Source of the DNA: Gemmatimonas groenlandica
GTDB lineage: Bacteria; Gemmatimonadota; Gemmatimonadetes; Gemmatimonadales; Gemmatimonadaceae
Direction: 5' to 3'
Length of the DNA: 64,000 nt
Assembly (NCBI RefSeq): GCF_013004105.1
Contig: NZ_CP053085.1
Coordinates: 4,340,001-4,404,000, forward strand
Shown: positions 5,601 to 64,000 of the stretch, piece after piece
Layout: every line of letters begins with the position of its first letter
How positions within the stretch are numbered: position 1 is the stretch's first letter
Made by a program: the position numbers and the translations under genes
Notes under the pieces: model-generated
Told to the model about the DNA's origin: nothing
Databases searched by the model: none
Seen by the model: the letters and a program-made list of their open reading frames with translations, nothing else

Positions 5601-7304
5601 CTATCCGTCCATCGGCCACTCCACCGCGCCGGAGTGCGTCACCGCGCCCTGATGCGCCGGGCCGACCAGGCGGGTGTACTTCTCCAGCACCCCGCCGAGT
5701 CGCACCGGAACGGCCGCCGGCAATGCGGCCAGTCGCTCGGCCAATTCGGTGTCGCTGAGTTCCACCGTGATACGGCGCGCCACAGGCCGTGCGTCGATCG
5801 AGATGATATCTCCATCGCGCAGCAGGGCGATCGGGCCTCTATCGGCCGCTTCCGGCCCCGCATGGCCGATGCACAGGCCGCGGGTGGCTCCGCTGAAGCG
5901 GCCGTCGGTCAGCAAGGCCACGTCGGCCCCCATACCCTGACCGTAGATCAGCGCGGTGATGCCGAGCATCTCGCGCATGCCGGGGCCGCCGCGCGGGCCC
6001 TCGTTGCGAATCACCAGCACGTCTCCGCGGGCGTATTGCTGGTCGCGCACCGCCACCTGGGCGTGCTCCTCCGATTCGAACACCCGGGCGGGACCGCGAT
6101 GCACCAGGGTGGTGAGTCCCGCGGTCTTCAGTAGGGCGCCGTCAGGGCAGAGGTTACCGGTCAGCATGGTCACGCCGCCGTCGGTCGAGCGGGCGTTCGC
6201 CACCGTGCGTACCACGTCACCGTCGGGCAGCGCCGCGCTCTCGAGCTCCTTCGCCAGCGTGAGCCCCGTGTACGTGAGGCAGTCGCCGTGGAGTGCGCCC
6301 GCCTCGAGCAGCGCGCGCATGACCACGCCGGCGCCGCCCACGTGGTACAGGTCGCGCGCCAGAAATCGGCCGCCGGGTTGCAGGTCGGCGATCAGGGGCG
6401 TGCGCGCAAAGACCGCGGCCACGTCGTCCAGGTGGAAACGGATCCCGGCCTCGTGCGCGATCGCAGGTAGATGCAACGCGGCGTTGGTGGAACCGCCGGT
6501 AGCCGAGACCACGGCGCACGCGTTCTCCAGCGAGACGCGTGTGACGATGTCGCGCGGTAGCGGACCGTCGCCCATCACGGCCCTCATCAGCGCGACGCCG
6601 GCCCGACGCATGAGCGGGGCCCGCTCGCTGTACACAGCGGGAATCATGCTCGAGCCGATGGGGGCGAGCCCCAGCGCCTCCGACACCATGCCCATCGTAT
6701 TCGCGGTGAACTGACCGGCGCAGGACCCCGCCGTGGGCAGACACGAATGCGTGATCTCGCGCAGATCGTCGGGTGTCGCTTCGTTGGCGAGTACCTTGCC
6801 GATCATCTCGTACGTTTCGCCGATGTTCGTATCGCGTCCGCGGAAATGGCCCGGCAGCGCGGCGCCCCCATGCACGAACACGCCGGGCACATTGCAGCGT
6901 ACGATGCCCATCATGAGGCCGGGCAGATTCTTGTCGCATCCACCGATCGCGAAGATACCATCCCACTGATGTCCGCGAGTGGATGCCTCGACACTGTCGG
7001 CGATGATCTCGCGCGAAACCAGCGAGAAGCGCATACCGCTGTGCGCGATCGATAATCCATCCGACACCGACGCCACCGGACATTCGTGCGGCATGCCGCC
7101 TGCGGCGTAGATCCCCGTTTTCGCATGCAGGGCCTGATCGCGCAGCAACATGTTGCACGGGCTCATCTCGCCGCCCGTGTGAAACACGCCGATGTGCGGC
7201 CGCGCGATCTCGTCGTCATCCTGCCCGAGGGCGTGCAGAAACGCCCGCGTCGGTGCGCGCAGCATGCCCTCGTGAATGTTGGCCGAGCGGAAGCGCTTGG
7301 TCAT
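5601..7304 (-). CDS. IlvD/Edd-family dehydratase (dihydroxy-acid dehydratase-like)
   Basis: The 567-residue Fe-S dehydratase removes water from a 2,3-dihydroxy acid to give a 2-keto acid. Cluster-binding regions are seen as SPCN near residue 50, GGCDKNLPG near 122 and AGSCAGQFTANTM near 195. The C-terminal DGRFSGATRG and EGPRGGPGMREM blocks are strongly family-like. Real dihydroxy-acid dehydratases usually read GACGGMYTANTM, so the variant GSCAGQF hints at another substrate. The ATG at 7304 overlaps the upstream stop (ATGA). It is last in an operon with an SDR and a beta-hydroxyacid dehydrogenase; a sugar- or hydroxy-acid catabolic role is inferred, with isoleucine/valine synthesis as the alternative. 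Confidence 0.85.
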   Translation of the reverse strand: MTKRFRSANIHEGMLRAPTRAFLHALGQDDDEIARPHIGVFHTGGEMSPCNMLLRDQALHAKTGIYAAGGMPHECPVASVSDGLSIAHSGMRFSLVSREIIADSVEASTRGHQWDGIFAIGGCDKNLPGLMMGIVRCNVPGVFVHGGAALPGHFRGRDTNIGETYEMIGKVLANEATPDDLREITHSCLPTAGSCAGQFTANTMGMVSEALGLAPIGSSMIPAVYSERAPLMRRAGVALMRAVMGDGPLPRDIVTRVSLENACAVVSATGGSTNAALHLPAIAHEAGIRFHLDDVAAVFARTPLIADLQPGGRFLARDLYHVGGAGVVMRALLEAGALHGDCLTYTGLTLAKELESAALPDGDVVRTVANARSTDGGVTMLTGNLCPDGALLKTAGLTTLVHRGPARVFESEEHAQVAVRDQQYARGDVLVIRNEGPRGGPGMREMLGITALIYGQGMGADVALLTDGRFSGATRGLCIGHAGPEAADRGPIALLRDGDIISIDARPVARRITVELSDTELAERLAALPAAVPVRLGGVLEKYTRLVGPAHQGAVTHSGAVEWPMDG

Positions 7305-46917: not shown

Positions 46918-47087
46918 GGCAACTGCCAGAGCACGGAGACCACGGAATTCACCGAACCAACACAGATAGGCAACGAGCGCCTCATCGTGATCATCGCCGT
47001 AGGCTTATCCGTGCTGGTTCGGTGTGATCGGTGCCATCCGTGTTCTGGCTGTTGCTGTTGCTGTTGCTGTTGCCGTTGCCGTTGCTG
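46918..47087. repeat. Family A composite palindrome, copy A5
   Basis: This 170-bp copy lies in the 418-bp divergent gap between the TonB receptor and the zinc protease. Left words GGCAACTGCCAGAGCACGG and GAACCAACACAGATAGGC pair with GGCTTATCCGTGCTGGTTC and CCGTGTTCTGGC. The right end extends into six GTTGCT/GTTGCC hexamers (47050-47087) with little left counterpart. The other ~250 bp of the gap (46778-46917 and 47088-47195) must hold the two promoters; none was assigned with confidence. Confidence 0.84.
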
Positions 47088-47195
47088 ATTTCGACGCCAA
47101 TGCCGCCCGCATTCCCCGCCCTTGCGGATAGCGCGCCCCTCTCTGCCGGTGCTACAATCGAGAGTTCGCCGAACCTCCACCTCGTCCCGCGCCAC

Positions 47196-49649
47196 ATGTC
47201 CCAGCTCTGCCCACGTTCGCTGCCGCAATGGTTTGCCGCCGCGGCGGTCGCCCTGACCGGCGTCACGTCTGTGCTCCACGCCCAAGCACCTGACGCCCCG
47301 TTCCTGCGCGTGCGCGTGGACGAAGCGCGCAATCGCGCCCTGCTCGATATCCCCGCCGGACAGATGGGCAAGGATTTCCTGCATCAAGTCACCCTCACGA
47401 CCGGACTCGGACAGAGCAACGGCCCCGGTCTCGACCGTGCCCAGATGGGGCAGAGCGTGGTGGTGCGCCTCGAGCGACGCGGCAATCGCGTGCTGATGGT
47501 GCGCGACAACTGGAGCGTGCGGGCCCCGAACGGTGACGCCGGCAACAAGCAGGCGGCGTCCGACGCCTTTCCGCGGTCGGTGGTGGCCTCGTTCACCGTC
47601 GACGGCGAAAAGGACGGCATGACGACCGTTGATGCGACGTCGCTCTTCCTGGCGGACGCGTACGGCGTGGCCGACGCGCTCCGCGGCGGTGCAGGGCCGG
47701 GCGGCGTCGGTGCCGGCGGCTCGGCCGGCGTCTATCGCGTGGATGCCACCCGCAGCTGGCTCGATACCGCGCGCACCAAGGCCTTTCCGAAGAATGCCGA
47801 AGTGCACGCCATCCTCACCTTCGTGAGCGACGCTCCCGGCGGACTCGCGCGCCGTGCCGCACCCGATCCGAAAGCCATGACCTTCGAGGAGCACCACTCA
47901 CTGGTCGTGCTCCCCGATCCCACCAGCTACCGTCCGCGCAACTTCGATCCGCGCTTCGGCTACGGCGGGACGCAGTTCGCCGATCTCTCGCAGGGTTTCG
48001 ACGGCACCTATCGCTCGGGCTTCATCAACCGCTGGCGTCTCGTGCCCAAGGATCCTGCGGCGTATCGTCGCGGCGAGCTCGTGGAGCCGGTCACGCCGGT
48101 CACGTACTACCTCGACCCCGGTGTGCCGCCGCAGTACCGCGAAGCGCTGCGGCAGGGAGGCAACTGGTGGGCCAAAGTGTTCGAAGCCGCCGGCTTCAAG
48201 AACGCCTTCCGCGTCCTCGATCTGCCGGCCGGCGCCGACCCGATGGACGCCCGATACAACATGCTGATGTGGGTGCACCGCTCCGGTCCCGGCCCGAGCG
48301 TGGGCCCGAGCTACAGCGATCCGCGAACCGGTGAGATCATCCGCGCCATCGTGCGCATGGACGCCTGGCGCTCGCTGGTCGACTACAACATCTGGGCCGG
48401 CACAGTGCCCGCCTCCGGTCCGCGCGGCCCGAATGTGGACGCCGAGACGTTCGCGATGTCGCGCCGCCGTCAGCACGCCGCCCACGAGATCGGCCACACG
48501 CTCGGCTTGTCGCACAACTACATCGCGCATTCGCAGGGCCGGACGTCGGTGATGGACTATCCGTATCCGCTGATCACGCTCGCCGCCGATGGCACGCCCG
48601 ATCTGCGCGACGCGTACCGTAAAGGCCCCGGCGCCTGGGACACGCTCGCCATTAAGCTGGGTTACACCTGGTACGCCGACAGCGCGTCGGAAGCGAAGGG
48701 ACTCGACGCGATCATGAAGGATGGTCTCGCGCGCAACGTGCGTTTCATCAACGACCAGTACGCCAACGCCAACGGATCGATTCCGGAAGTGACGCGCTGG
48801 GTGGAAGGCGCCACGATGTTCGACGCCGTCGAGCGCACGTCGAAGTTGCGTCGCGTGCTGATGGACAAGTTCGACGAGCGCGCGATCAAGCCGGGCGAGC
48901 CGATGGCGCTGCTCAACATGCGCTTCGCCCATGTGTATCTGCATCACCGTTACTCACTGGAAGGCCTCGCCAAGAACATCGGCGGTATGGACTTCACGTT
49001 CACGCTGCGCGGCGACGGACAGACGCCGACCACGATCGTGCCCGCAGCGACCCAGCGTCGCGCGCTCACGATGGCGCTCGACGCCATTCAGCCGAGTGAG
49101 CTTACGGTCCCCGAGCGCGTACAGAAGATGATCCCGCCCGCGCCGCCGGGTTTCAATGCCGACATGACGTGGATCGACAGCAACGGCGGCACCACGTTCG
49201 ACGCCGTCACGCTGGCCGGTGGACTGGCAACGGAAGTGATCGGCTATCTGCTCGACCGCGAGCGCCTCGCGCGTGTCGTGCTGATCGCGGGACGTGACAA
49301 CGCCGCGCTCTCGCTCGACGAAGTACTACGCGCCGTCGTGCAGCGCACGTGGGGCAGCACCGCCGCGACCGCGGCCGCCGAGAAGGCCGTGCAACGCGCC
49401 GCCCAGCGCGCCGCCGTCGACGCGATCCTTGACCTTGCCGGCGACAAGCGTGCCATGCCCGACGTGCGTGCCGCCGCGCTGATGCATCTCAAGGCGCTCG
49501 ACACGCAGCTCGCCGGCATGACGTCGGCCGACGCCGCGGTGCAAGCCCACGTGGCCTCCGCGCGTCACGACATCGCGACGTTCATGGACGGCAACGACGA
49601 CCCGAGCGCGCGACCGAGGTTCCCGGTGATTGTACTACCGTGGCCGTAA
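47196..49649 (+). CDS. Exported zinc-dependent metalloprotease (DUF5117/DUF4953 type)
   Basis: The 817-residue protein has a signal peptide ending near SVLHAQ. It follows the DUF5118/5117-DUF4953 architecture: an N-terminal beta domain, VTYYLDPGVPPQYREALRQG, then the metzincin-type zinc site HAAHEIGHTLGLSHNY near residue 430-445 (HExxHxxGxxH) with Met-turn VMDYPYP near 455. The helical C-terminal ~250 residues end in VIVLPWP. It degrades proteins or peptides outside the cytosol. The ATG at 47196 is chosen because it begins the signal peptide; the frame upstream runs through repeat A5 and is spurious. Repeat B1 follows 7 bp after its stop. Confidence 0.9.
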   Translation: MSQLCPRSLPQWFAAAAVALTGVTSVLHAQAPDAPFLRVRVDEARNRALLDIPAGQMGKDFLHQVTLTTGLGQSNGPGLDRAQMGQSVVVRLERRGNRVLMVRDNWSVRAPNGDAGNKQAASDAFPRSVVASFTVDGEKDGMTTVDATSLFLADAYGVADALRGGAGPGGVGAGGSAGVYRVDATRSWLDTARTKAFPKNAEVHAILTFVSDAPGGLARRAAPDPKAMTFEEHHSLVVLPDPTSYRPRNFDPRFGYGGTQFADLSQGFDGTYRSGFINRWRLVPKDPAAYRRGELVEPVTPVTYYLDPGVPPQYREALRQGGNWWAKVFEAAGFKNAFRVLDLPAGADPMDARYNMLMWVHRSGPGPSVGPSYSDPRTGEIIRAIVRMDAWRSLVDYNIWAGTVPASGPRGPNVDAETFAMSRRRQHAAHEIGHTLGLSHNYIAHSQGRTSVMDYPYPLITLAADGTPDLRDAYRKGPGAWDTLAIKLGYTWYADSASEAKGLDAIMKDGLARNVRFINDQYANANGSIPEVTRWVEGATMFDAVERTSKLRRVLMDKFDERAIKPGEPMALLNMRFAHVYLHHRYSLEGLAKNIGGMDFTFTLRGDGQTPTTIVPAATQRRALTMALDAIQPSELTVPERVQKMIPPAPPGFNADMTWIDSNGGTTFDAVTLAGGLATEVIGYLLDRERLARVVLIAGRDNAALSLDEVLRAVVQRTWGSTAATAAAEKAVQRAAQRAAVDAILDLAGDKRAMPDVRAAALMHLKALDTQLAGMTSADAAVQAHVASARHDIATFMDGNDDPSARPRFPVIVLPWP

Positions 49650-49656
49650 TTCACGG

Positions 49657-49886
49657 ACAAACCGCGCTAAGAATCGACCGCGCTAAGAGTGAACGGCGCT
49701 AAGAGTCAAGCACGCGAAGAGTAAGGGGCGTAAACGACGAACCGCGCCAACAGCCAAGAGCTCAAAGCTCAGCACTGTTGGCGCGGTTTGCCTTTCCCGC
49801 CCTTCATTCTTGGCGCCCCCTACCTTAGCGCCGTTCACGCTTAGCGCCGTTCACTTTTAGCGCCGTTGACTCTTCGCGCCGTTTGT
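49657..49886. repeat. Family B composite palindrome, copy B1
   Basis: This 230-bp palindrome lies between the zinc protease and a small exported gene. The left arm holds tandem 16-bp units of the type ACGGCGCTAAGAGTGA (about five, partly decayed). The centre is a perfect 14-bp stem (49740-49753 with 49775-49788) enclosing a second small stem. The right arm has the reverse-complement units, core ACTCTTAGCGCCGT. No ORF. The rest of the 326-bp gap holds only the ribosome site of the next gene. Confidence 0.9.
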
Positions 49887-49975
49887 TTTCACGGTGCTCT
49901 ACGTCCATCCGACGCAACCCTTCTCGCCTTCGCCGTGACTCATGCGGTAACCCGCCTACCTTTGGAGCTAACTTC

Positions 49976-50428
49976 ATGAAGATCCCGCTGTGCGTTGCGT
50001 TCGTGGCCCTGGCCCTCGCGAATAGTCCGGTGGCCGCGCAGTCCTCCCTCGTCGGCCACTGGGATATCGACTACGAGCGTGGACGTCGCATCGAGAACGA
50101 CGTCGTCACCCCGGTCATGGGAAAAGCCACGCTCACCATCGCGCTGCAGGGCGACTCGCTCGTGGCCACGCTCCAGCCCACGCCGCGGCCGGACGGCACG
50201 CCCGTGCCTGCCGCCACGATGTCCGCGAAGCCGTCGGCCTCCGGCGTCGTGTTCGTGCAGAAGCAGATCGTGCAGCTCAACGTCGATGGCGAAGTGCGAC
50301 CGCAGGAAGCCACCGTCACCTGGACGCTGCAGGCGACCGGCGATGTGCTGTCCGGCACACTACTCCGCGCGCTGCCGATGATGCCGGAAGCACCGAGCCC
50401 GACTGCGGTTACTGGCAAGAGGATGTAA
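49976..50428 (+). CDS. Small exported protein, unknown function
   Basis: The 150-residue protein has a signal peptide (MKIPLCVAFVALALANSPVAAQ). The mature ~128 residues look like a single beta-sandwich or barrel: LVGHWDIDYERG, KATLTIALQGDSLVATLQP, ATVTWTLQATGDVLSGTLLR. The pattern recalls lipocalin-like or DUF-type small secreted proteins that measure treated versus control, but no family is certain. GGAG lies 9 nt before the ATG at 49976. It is the only gene between palindromes B1 and B2. Confidence 0.7.
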   Translation: MKIPLCVAFVALALANSPVAAQSSLVGHWDIDYERGRRIENDVVTPVMGKATLTIALQGDSLVATLQPTPRPDGTPVPAATMSAKPSASGVVFVQKQIVQLNVDGEVRPQEATVTWTLQATGDVLSGTLLRALPMMPEAPSPTAVTGKRM

Positions 50429-50435
50429 AGGATGA

Positions 50436-50606
50436 ACGGCGCTAAGAGTGAAAAGCGCTAAGAGTCAACGGCGCCAAGAATCAACGGCGCTAAGAGTGAA
50501 CGGCGCCAACCACGCCGGCGCCGTTGGCTGTTTCGCCCCTTATTCTTAGCGCGGTTCATTCTTAGCGCCGTTCATTCCTAGCGCCGTTGATTCTTAGCGC
50601 CCCTCG
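50436..50606. repeat. Family B composite palindrome, copy B2
   Basis: This 171-bp copy has four 16-bp left units at 50436, 50452, 50468 and 50484 (core GCGCTAAGAGT, spacing exactly 16). A central 9-bp perfect stem follows (50499-50507 with 50517-50525), then three reverse-complement units at 50549, 50565 and 50581. It begins 7 bp after one stop codon and ends 11 bp before the Nudix start, so it lies within or next to that gene's leader. Confidence 0.92.
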
Positions 50607-50617
50607 CCGGTGACAAC

Positions 50618-51031
50618 ATGAGGTTCCCCCGCATCGGCGTCGCCGTCATTGTGGTCCGCGACGGACAGGTCTTGGTTGGCCGGCGGCTCGGCGGCACGCA
50701 GGGGCACAACACGTGGCAGTTCCCCGGCGGCCATCTCGAGTTCGGCGAATCCATCGCGGCCTGTGCCGTGCGCGAGGTCGCCGAAGAGACCGGACTCGAT
50801 GTCACCGTGACCGGCGTCGGTCCGTTCACCAATGACTTCTTCGAGGCGGCGGGCAAGCACTACGTCACGCTTTTTGTGCTCGCGACGGCGCAGGTCGGTT
50901 CACCCCGCGTGCTGGAGCCGGAGAAATGCGCCGAATGGCGCTGGTGCTCGTGGGATGCCATTCCCGAGCCACGCTTTCTCTCCGTTCAGCATCTGCTTGA
51001 GCAGGGCTTTCGCCCGCCCGGCGTTGTGTAG
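50618..51031 (+). CDS. Nudix hydrolase
   Basis: The 137-residue protein has a complete Nudix box, GGHLEFGESIAACAVREVAEETGL, near residues 38-61 (GX5EX7REUXEEXGU), preceded by HNTWQFPGG. This arrangement is close to NUDT15/MutT-type nucleotide-pool sanitisers, which hydrolyse (deoxy)nucleoside triphosphate analogues; the substrate here is not proven. The ATG at 50618 has GGTGA 6 nt upstream. The start lies 11 bp after palindrome B2, whose fold could affect translation. Confidence 0.92.
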   Translation: MRFPRIGVAVIVVRDGQVLVGRRLGGTQGHNTWQFPGGHLEFGESIAACAVREVAEETGLDVTVTGVGPFTNDFFEAAGKHYVTLFVLATAQVGSPRVLEPEKCAEWRWCSWDAIPEPRFLSVQHLLEQGFRPPGVV

Positions 51032-63747: not shown

Positions 63748-64000
63748 ACGGCGCTAGGAATAGACAGCGCTAAGAGTAAACAACGCTAAGAGTAAACAAC
63801 GCTAAGAGTAAACAACGCTAAGAGTAAACAACGCTAAGAGTTAGGGGCGCTAAGAGTTAGGGGCGCTAAGAGTTAGGGGCGCTAAGAGTTAGGGGCGCTA
63901 AGAGTTAGGAGCGACGGGGAGAATACGCGTGACCGCACGGGGTGGTCGGCGCGGTTCGCCGTGTCGCTCTTTCCTTTTCGCGCCGTTTATTCTTGGCGCC
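63748..64000. repeat. Family B composite palindrome, copy B3 (cut by window end)
   Basis: Ten consecutive 16-bp units fill 63748-63907 at exact 16-bp spacing. One is decayed (GCTAGGAATAG), then come copies of ACAACGCTAAGAGTAA, then four of GGGGCGCTAAGAGTTA. A central region with a 7-bp GAGCGAC/GTCGCTC stem follows. The right arm begins at TTCGCGCCG and TTCTTGGCGCC and runs off the window. It starts 13 bp after the lipoprotein stop. Confidence 0.9.

What the first reader, a model, noticed from the sequence alone, without database searches (positions are those of the whole stretch)
49657..50606. Family B: long palindromes assembled from tandem 16-bp units
Copies B1 and B2 each have a left arm of repeated ACGGCGCTAAGAGTGA-type units at exactly 16-bp steps, a perfect central stem, and a right arm of the same units reverse-complemented. 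A palindrome whose arms are themselves tandem arrays is not an ordinary terminator or REP. Unit number differs between copies, so arms may grow by slippage or unequal exchange while staying complementary. I know of no described family with this layout; that is a statement of memory, not a search.
Basis: partly seen in the sequence, partly recalled or inferred. Interest (0 to 1): 0.78.

Follow-up and report, generated by a model that had tools for sequence, protein, structure and literature searches.

The report
Gene-less hairpin elements with tandem-repeat arms
The two long palindromes are gene-less copies of an apparently mobile hairpin element whose full versions carry a small four-helix-bundle gene of unknown function between arms of short tandem repeats; such elements turn up in several bacterial phyla and I found no description of them outside ribosomal RNA genes.

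Summary
Confirmed: B1 and B2 are palindromes with arms of 16-bp tandem units; a third copy straddles the window's right end, and the genome holds about 14 elements. The surprise is what they belong to. One genomic copy (E6) carries a 23S_rRNA_IVP / four-helix-bundle (4HB) gene between the same arms. Across Gemmatimonadota, 18 of 21 4HB genes in four genomes and 23 of 27 from other genera lie between inverted arms, usually tandem arrays (about 1% in controls). So do 14 of 15 plasmid-borne 4HB genes, mainly cyanobacterial. Arms of a given 4HB element recur as gene-less palindromes almost only in its own genome. Nearly identical Nostoc plasmids show arms plus gene present or absent between a stop codon and the next start, and one site holds a gene-less tandem-arm hairpin. 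Best reading: B1/B2 are non-autonomous members of a mobile hairpin-element class related to the intervening sequences of 23S rRNA genes; not REP/RAYT elements or ordinary terminators. Insertion units are shown; movement in trans by the 4HB protein, and the chemistry, are inferred. I found no description outside rRNA genes in the open-access library; subscription literature was not searchable.

The parts
49655..49739 (+). B1 left arm: about four 16-bp units (cores at 49665, 49681, 49697, 49713) plus degenerate units
   Evidence: starts 5 bp after the stop codon of the upstream gene
49740..49788 (.). B1 central stem-loop AACCGCGCCAACAG...CTGTTGGCGCGGTT, conserved in seven species with a paired T-A to C-G change in this genome
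49804..49886 (-). B1 right arm: 4-5 units, reverse complement
50430..50499 (+). B2 left arm: four 16-bp units starting at 50436
   Evidence: starts 1-2 bp after the stop of the upstream gene
50500..50539 (.). B2 centre with short GC-rich stem
50540..50605 (-). B2 right arm: four units, reverse complement
   Evidence: ends 13 bp before the NUDIX start codon
63748..63907 (+). Third copy (E11), left arm: ten units at 16-bp steps, two unit sub-types
63908..64000 (.). Third copy, centre and beginning of the right arm; the element continues about 52 bp beyond the window
47031..49649 (+). Upstream gene (large ORF, zinc-metalloprotease-like HExxH sequence); its 3' end carries the palindrome in seven species
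49976..50428 (+). Small secreted-looking ORF between B1 and B2 (no Pfam match); absent at this place in the relatives examined
50618..51031 (+). NUDIX hydrolase gene downstream of B2

Best explanation
B1 and B2 are ORF-less, non-autonomous members of a class of mobile hairpin elements. The full element is a four-helix-bundle gene (TIGR02436 / PF05635, the 23S rRNA-intervening-sequence protein family) between two inverted arms made mostly of short tandem repeats (7 bp commonly, 16 bp here). Shown: the layout in several phyla; insertion units that carry arms and gene together, seen by presence and absence in near-identical plasmids; a niche next to stop codons; gene-less copies that share arms with a 4HB element almost only within the same genome. 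Inferred: the 4HB protein recognises its own arms and mobilises gene-less copies in trans, much as an autonomous transposon mobilises MITEs; the folded hairpin, as single-stranded DNA or RNA, is the substrate; slots beside stop codons are where insertions are tolerated or aimed; arm length changes by slippage. If transcribed, the hairpin is probably cut by RNase III, as shown for rRNA intervening sequences.
For: E6 in this genome has a PF05635 gene between arms of the same 16-bp unit; its orthologs in G015 and G024, and in G020 with that species' own unit, keep gene and arms. Inverted arms flank 14 of 19 genus loci, 23 of 27 loci of other genera and 18 of 21 loci of four genomes, against 0.8-1% of controls, and 14 of 15 plasmid loci score above 200 shuffles. 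Arms of 4HB elements hit gene-less inverted pairs almost only in their own genome: 138 own against 1 foreign for G000, 22 against 0 for G029. Filled, empty and gene-less states of the same sites exist in Nostoc plasmids, and empty sites have no arms. Both element forms sit beside stop codons.
Against: No movement was observed and the 4HB protein has no known catalytic activity. Target duplications are at best 3 bp and unproven. Some 4HB genes lack detectable arms (3 of 21; L360). The 16-bp palindromes lie at orthologous sites in many species, so most are old. In sister species the same sites hold the other unit, which simple insertion does not explain. No strand bias of wobble pairs supports an RNA intermediate.
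Confidence: 0.75

Rival explanations
1. The palindromes are resident structures, such as bidirectional transcription terminators or mRNA 3'-end stabilisers, and 4HB genes are separate parasites that home into hairpin loops, as rRNA intervening sequences replaced tetraloops.
For: Elements abut stop codons, often between convergent genes, and never lie in divergent gaps. Central stems are locus-specific and conserved. An IS256-type element sits in the centre of E5, so palindrome centres do receive insertions. Known rRNA IVSs replaced tetraloops.
Against: In Nostoc plasmids the empty sites have no arms at all, so arms arrive with the gene. There is no U-tract at B1 or B2. 4HB arms and gene-less copies share their unit within a genome.
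Confidence: 0.13
2. REP/BIME-like repeats mobilised by a RAYT (TnpA-REP) transposase.
For: Dispersed intergenic palindromes, several to tens per genome.
Against: No Y1_Tnp gene in G000, G015, G017 or G028, all carriers; Y1_Tnp occurs in G005, G006, G009, G016 and G018, which lack the repeat. Units are tandem arrays, not 20-40 bp single hairpins.
Confidence: 0.03
3. MITEs of an ordinary DDE transposon whose terminal inverted repeats carry tandem transposase-binding sites (bacterial foldback elements).
For: Inverted arms with internal tandem repeats resemble eukaryotic foldback elements; insertion units exist.
Against: The gene found between matching arms is 4HB again and again, not a transposase. 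The only transposase seen inside a palindrome (E5) is an IS256-type element with its own ends and an 8-bp repeat CGGTTCTG.
Confidence: 0.06
4. Local products of replication slippage and template switching at hairpins, with no mobile element involved.
For: One-sided arrays, unequal unit counts and local expansion (right arm of E2).
Against: The same unit at about 14 unlinked loci per genome, differing as a set between species groups, and whole-unit insertions in Nostoc need spread between loci.
Confidence: 0.03

Closest known systems
Intervening sequences (IVS) of bacterial 23S rRNA genes with the S23p / four-helix-bundle ORF (PMC4990558)
   Same: Stem-loop element with complementary ends, a PF05635-family ORF inside in some, sporadic distribution, selfish; ORF-less forms exist
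   Different: IVSs lie in helices of rRNA genes; these lie between protein genes, have tandem-array arms and come with same-unit gene-less palindromes elsewhere in the genome
REP/BIME elements and RAYTs
   Same: Dispersed intergenic palindromes near gene ends
   Different: Arms are tandem arrays of up to hundreds of bp; no correlation with RAYT genes
MITEs and eukaryotic foldback elements (Drosophila FB, Galileo; from memory)
   Same: Non-autonomous, long inverted arms built of tandem repeats
   Different: The associated gene is 4HB, not a transposase; no established target duplication
TAACTGA heptamer direct repeats of Beggiatoaceae and cyanobacteria (PMC4679880) and cyanobacterial STRR heptamers (from memory)
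   Same: Intergenic 7-bp tandem arrays of unknown origin
   Different: Described as direct repeats; S23 or four-helix proteins are not mentioned in that paper
Avd of diversity-generating retroelements
   Same: Related small helical-bundle protein (NF033474 hit below its cut-off)
   Different: No reverse transcriptase or template/variable repeats were seen at the loci examined

Membership tests
23S rRNA intervening sequence (IVS) | Located inside a 23S (or 16S) rRNA gene | tested here: not met
   B1, B2 and E6 lie between protein genes; no Rfam match in the window
23S rRNA intervening sequence (IVS) | Complementary ends forming a long stem | tested here: met
23S rRNA intervening sequence (IVS) | S23p / PF05635 ORF in coding members | tested here: met
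   E6 protein, PF05635 E = 2.5e-17; B1 and B2 themselves have none
23S rRNA intervening sequence (IVS) | Excision from the transcript by RNase III | not testable with these tools
   needs RNA work
REP/RAYT | RAYT (Y1_Tnp) gene in carrier genomes | tested here: not met
Intrinsic terminator | Short GC-rich hairpin followed by a run of T | tested here: not met
   Stems of about 175-235 bp; no T-run follows either palindrome
MITE of a DDE transposon | Autonomous relative with a transposase between the same ends | tested here: not met
   The gene between the same arms in E6 is 4HB; no transposase with these ends was seen in the loci read
MITE of a DDE transposon | Target-site duplication of fixed length | tested here: inconclusive
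   3-bp CTA and ATG at two Nostoc sites; unresolved for B1/B2
Diversity-generating retroelement (Avd) | Avd equivalog above its curated cut-off | tested here: not met
   32 bits against a cut-off of 80 for a related 4HB protein; no hit for the E6 protein
Known RNA family (Rfam) | Match at the gathering score | tested here: not met

The most novel reading that the evidence does not exclude
A class of bacterial mobile elements present in several phyla, built as a four-helix-bundle gene between inverted tandem-repeat arms, inserts beside stop codons and spreads gene-less hairpins in trans. The dispersed 4HB genes (TIGR02436), the 23S rRNA intervening sequences and many short tandem hairpin repeats would be parts of this one system.
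Probability: 0.5. Interest if true: 0.9.

Novelty: new variant of a known kind. Interest (0 to 1): 0.82.

Why it matters
Genes named 'four helix bundle protein' (TIGR02436 / S23) occur in many bacteria with no known role, and the origin of short tandem hairpin repeats in intergenic DNA is unexplained. Linking the two gives both a testable function: a small protein, without any recognised transposase, tied to its own family of hairpins. It would extend rRNA intervening sequences to a general mobile-element class, with insertions even inside CRISPR-cas operons, and offers a natural system for how palindromes spread and change their unit.

Tried and rejected
RAYT/REP: no correlation. Phage or plasmid origin of the 16-bp unit: no hits in viral contigs, plasmids or phages. 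Rfam: none. My first reading, that the arms were ends of large cargo transposons because E2 and E7 hold about 5 and 2.4 kb of genes, was dropped for E2: G017 has the same locus as a compact palindrome, so the genes are a later insert or a separate event; the interior of E7 is shared with G025 and remains unclear. 'Restricted to seven genomes' was wrong: sisters G020 and G027 carry a related unit. RNA-strand selection by wobble asymmetry: no signal. Paper searches for the repeat motifs and for tandem arms with 4HB returned nothing on this layout.

Full report
OBSERVATION. B1 and B2 are as described: 16-bp units in register, palindromic, far beyond chance (folds z = -13.05 and -11.26). A third copy begins at 63748 and ends about 52 bp beyond the window. 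The genome (one 5.18-Mb contig; the window is 4340001-4404000) has about 14 such places.

ANATOMY. Compact elements run roughly (AACGGCGCTAAGARTS)n, a variant unit AACGGCGCTAAGGTAA with a 15-bp step, a degenerate unit, a central stem, then the mirror image; several end in AACTGC/GCAGTT. Central stems are locus-specific and conserved between orthologs: that of B1 in seven species, with a paired T-A to C-G change in G000, and that of E4 in G000, G014 and G024. A group of copies shares a similar centre (GCGAATCAGTGCTCAGCGCG type) at different loci. Arms turn over faster.

SETTING. In G000 the elements begin mostly 1-15 bp after a stop codon, fill convergent or co-directional gaps, and none lies in a divergent gap (gene calls come from my own simple finder, so distances are approximate and a few neighbours are uncertain).

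DISTRIBUTION. The unit pair was found only in the genus Gemmatimonas among 119 genomes of relatives (three isolated hits elsewhere are a different 8-bp repeat) and in an exact scan of about 85,000 species genomes. Sister species G020 and G027 hold arrays of a related 16-bp unit (CGTYAGGA core); G027 has them at the B1, E4 and E5 sites and both at E6, sometimes with opposite nesting. Thus the unit differs as a set between species groups. A unit-blind scan finds other tandem-arm palindromes (8-20 bp units) in G000, G021 and G029, with none in block-shuffled DNA.

THE LINK. E6 carries a PF05635 / TIGR02436 four-helix-bundle gene between arms of the 16-bp unit. That family is in 28 of 30 Gemmatimonas genomes and 105 of 200 genomes of the phylum. 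Flanks were scored for inverted repeats within 500 bp: at least 35 in 14 of 19 genus loci, against 0.8% of random intervals and 1% of similar ORFs; 23 of 27 loci from other genera; 18 of 21 in a set taken from four genomes irrespective of score. The sets overlap slightly, and the first two were the best-scoring 4HB genes. Arms are commonly 7-bp tandem arrays (GGAGTCA, CGGAAGC, GGTATCA), though some arms are inverted repeats with little tandem order. 4HB elements mostly sit in convergent gaps with outer ends near stop codons, as the gene-less elements do.

SATELLITES. Arms of 4HB elements searched against stretches of three genomes hit almost only their own: 138 hits for G000 arms in 464 kb of G000, 1 in 400 kb of G021 plus G029; 22 and 0 for G029 arms. 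Most of the G000 hits come from the E6 family, but the 306k and 2497k families of G000 and two families of G029 behave alike. The 306k family gives six inverted pairs 12-46 bp apart, with no room for the gene. B1 and B2 are such satellites of E6.

MOBILITY. Plasmid 4HB genes come mainly from Cyanobacteria, with Azospirillum, Riemerella and Gemmatirosa among others. In 14 of 15 regions the gene lies between inverted arms, mostly tandem, that score above all of 200 shuffles. Some sit between genes of operons: cas6 and cas4, cas10 and cmr3, ribonucleotide reductase beta and alpha. Nostoc plasmids with about 93-95% identical backbones give filled and empty sites: at site A, TTCTAGGTTATG is interrupted by arms plus gene, leaving the next start intact; site B likewise; at the TraM site some native sequence is also replaced. 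At the TraM site of L380 the place is held by a gene-less tandem-arm hairpin, a direct analogue of B1/B2. These empty sites contain no arms, so arms and gene come as one unit.

MECHANISM. Shown: layout, insertion units, niche, satellites. Inferred: recognition of its own arms by the 4HB protein, movement in trans, a folded intermediate, slippage of arms. No catalytic activity is known for the protein; host functions may do the chemistry. Wobble counts give no sign that the structure is kept for one RNA strand.

COMPARISON. The nearest known thing is the intervening sequence of 23S rRNA genes: a stem-loop, S23p ORF, RNase III excision, selfish, unknown protein function. Position in rRNA is not met. 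REP/RAYT is not met. Paper searches of the open-access library found no description of 4HB elements with tandem arms outside rRNA; subscription papers were not searchable, so novelty is provisional.

LIMITS. Many relatives are fragmented metagenome bins, and the repeats break contigs. The inverted-repeat threshold was set by me. Target duplications are unresolved. Only fifteen plasmid loci were examined. The link between 4HB protein and arms is by position and sequence sharing, not by experiment.

Noticed in passing
L049 about 5790-7160 (genome 2817790-2819160): An IS256-like transposase gene (my reading of the ORF, no family search run) sits in the centre of palindrome E5 with inverted ends and an 8-bp direct repeat CGGTTCTG; palindrome centres may be insertion targets.
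   Followed up: partly
L046 5251-10430 (genome 2004250-2009430): About 5 kb with several ORFs lies between the two arms of E2 in G000, while G017 has the same locus as a compact palindrome.
   Followed up: partly
L051 6366-8960 (genome 2943366-2945960): Arms of E7 enclose about 2.4 kb with three minus-strand genes; much of this interior is shared with G025.
   Followed up: partly
G000 2044324, 2125953, 2973293, 2988385, 4437577: Other tandem-arm palindromes with 9-10 bp units (ACGCGAAGA, CGCAGAG) whose 4HB partner, if any, was not identified.
   Followed up: no
window 49650-50618 and orthologs: The genes just downstream of B1 differ between species: small ORF plus B2 in G000, nitroreductase-like gene in five species, nothing in G015, where one palindrome joins protease and NUDIX genes.
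   Followed up: partly
L354, L360, L365: Four-helix-bundle genes sit inside CRISPR-cas gene clusters on cyanobacterial plasmids (cas6/cas4 twice, cas10/cmr3 once).
   Followed up: partly
L369 930-1180: Dolichospermum, with nearly identical cas6 and cas4 flanks, has a different palindrome (GTAGGTTGGGTTG type) where Anabaena sp. 90 has the 4HB element.
   Followed up: no
L376 850-1453: Nostoc N6 plasmid: the 4HB element at site A looks truncated and joined to further repeat blocks, apparently a decaying copy.
   Followed up: no
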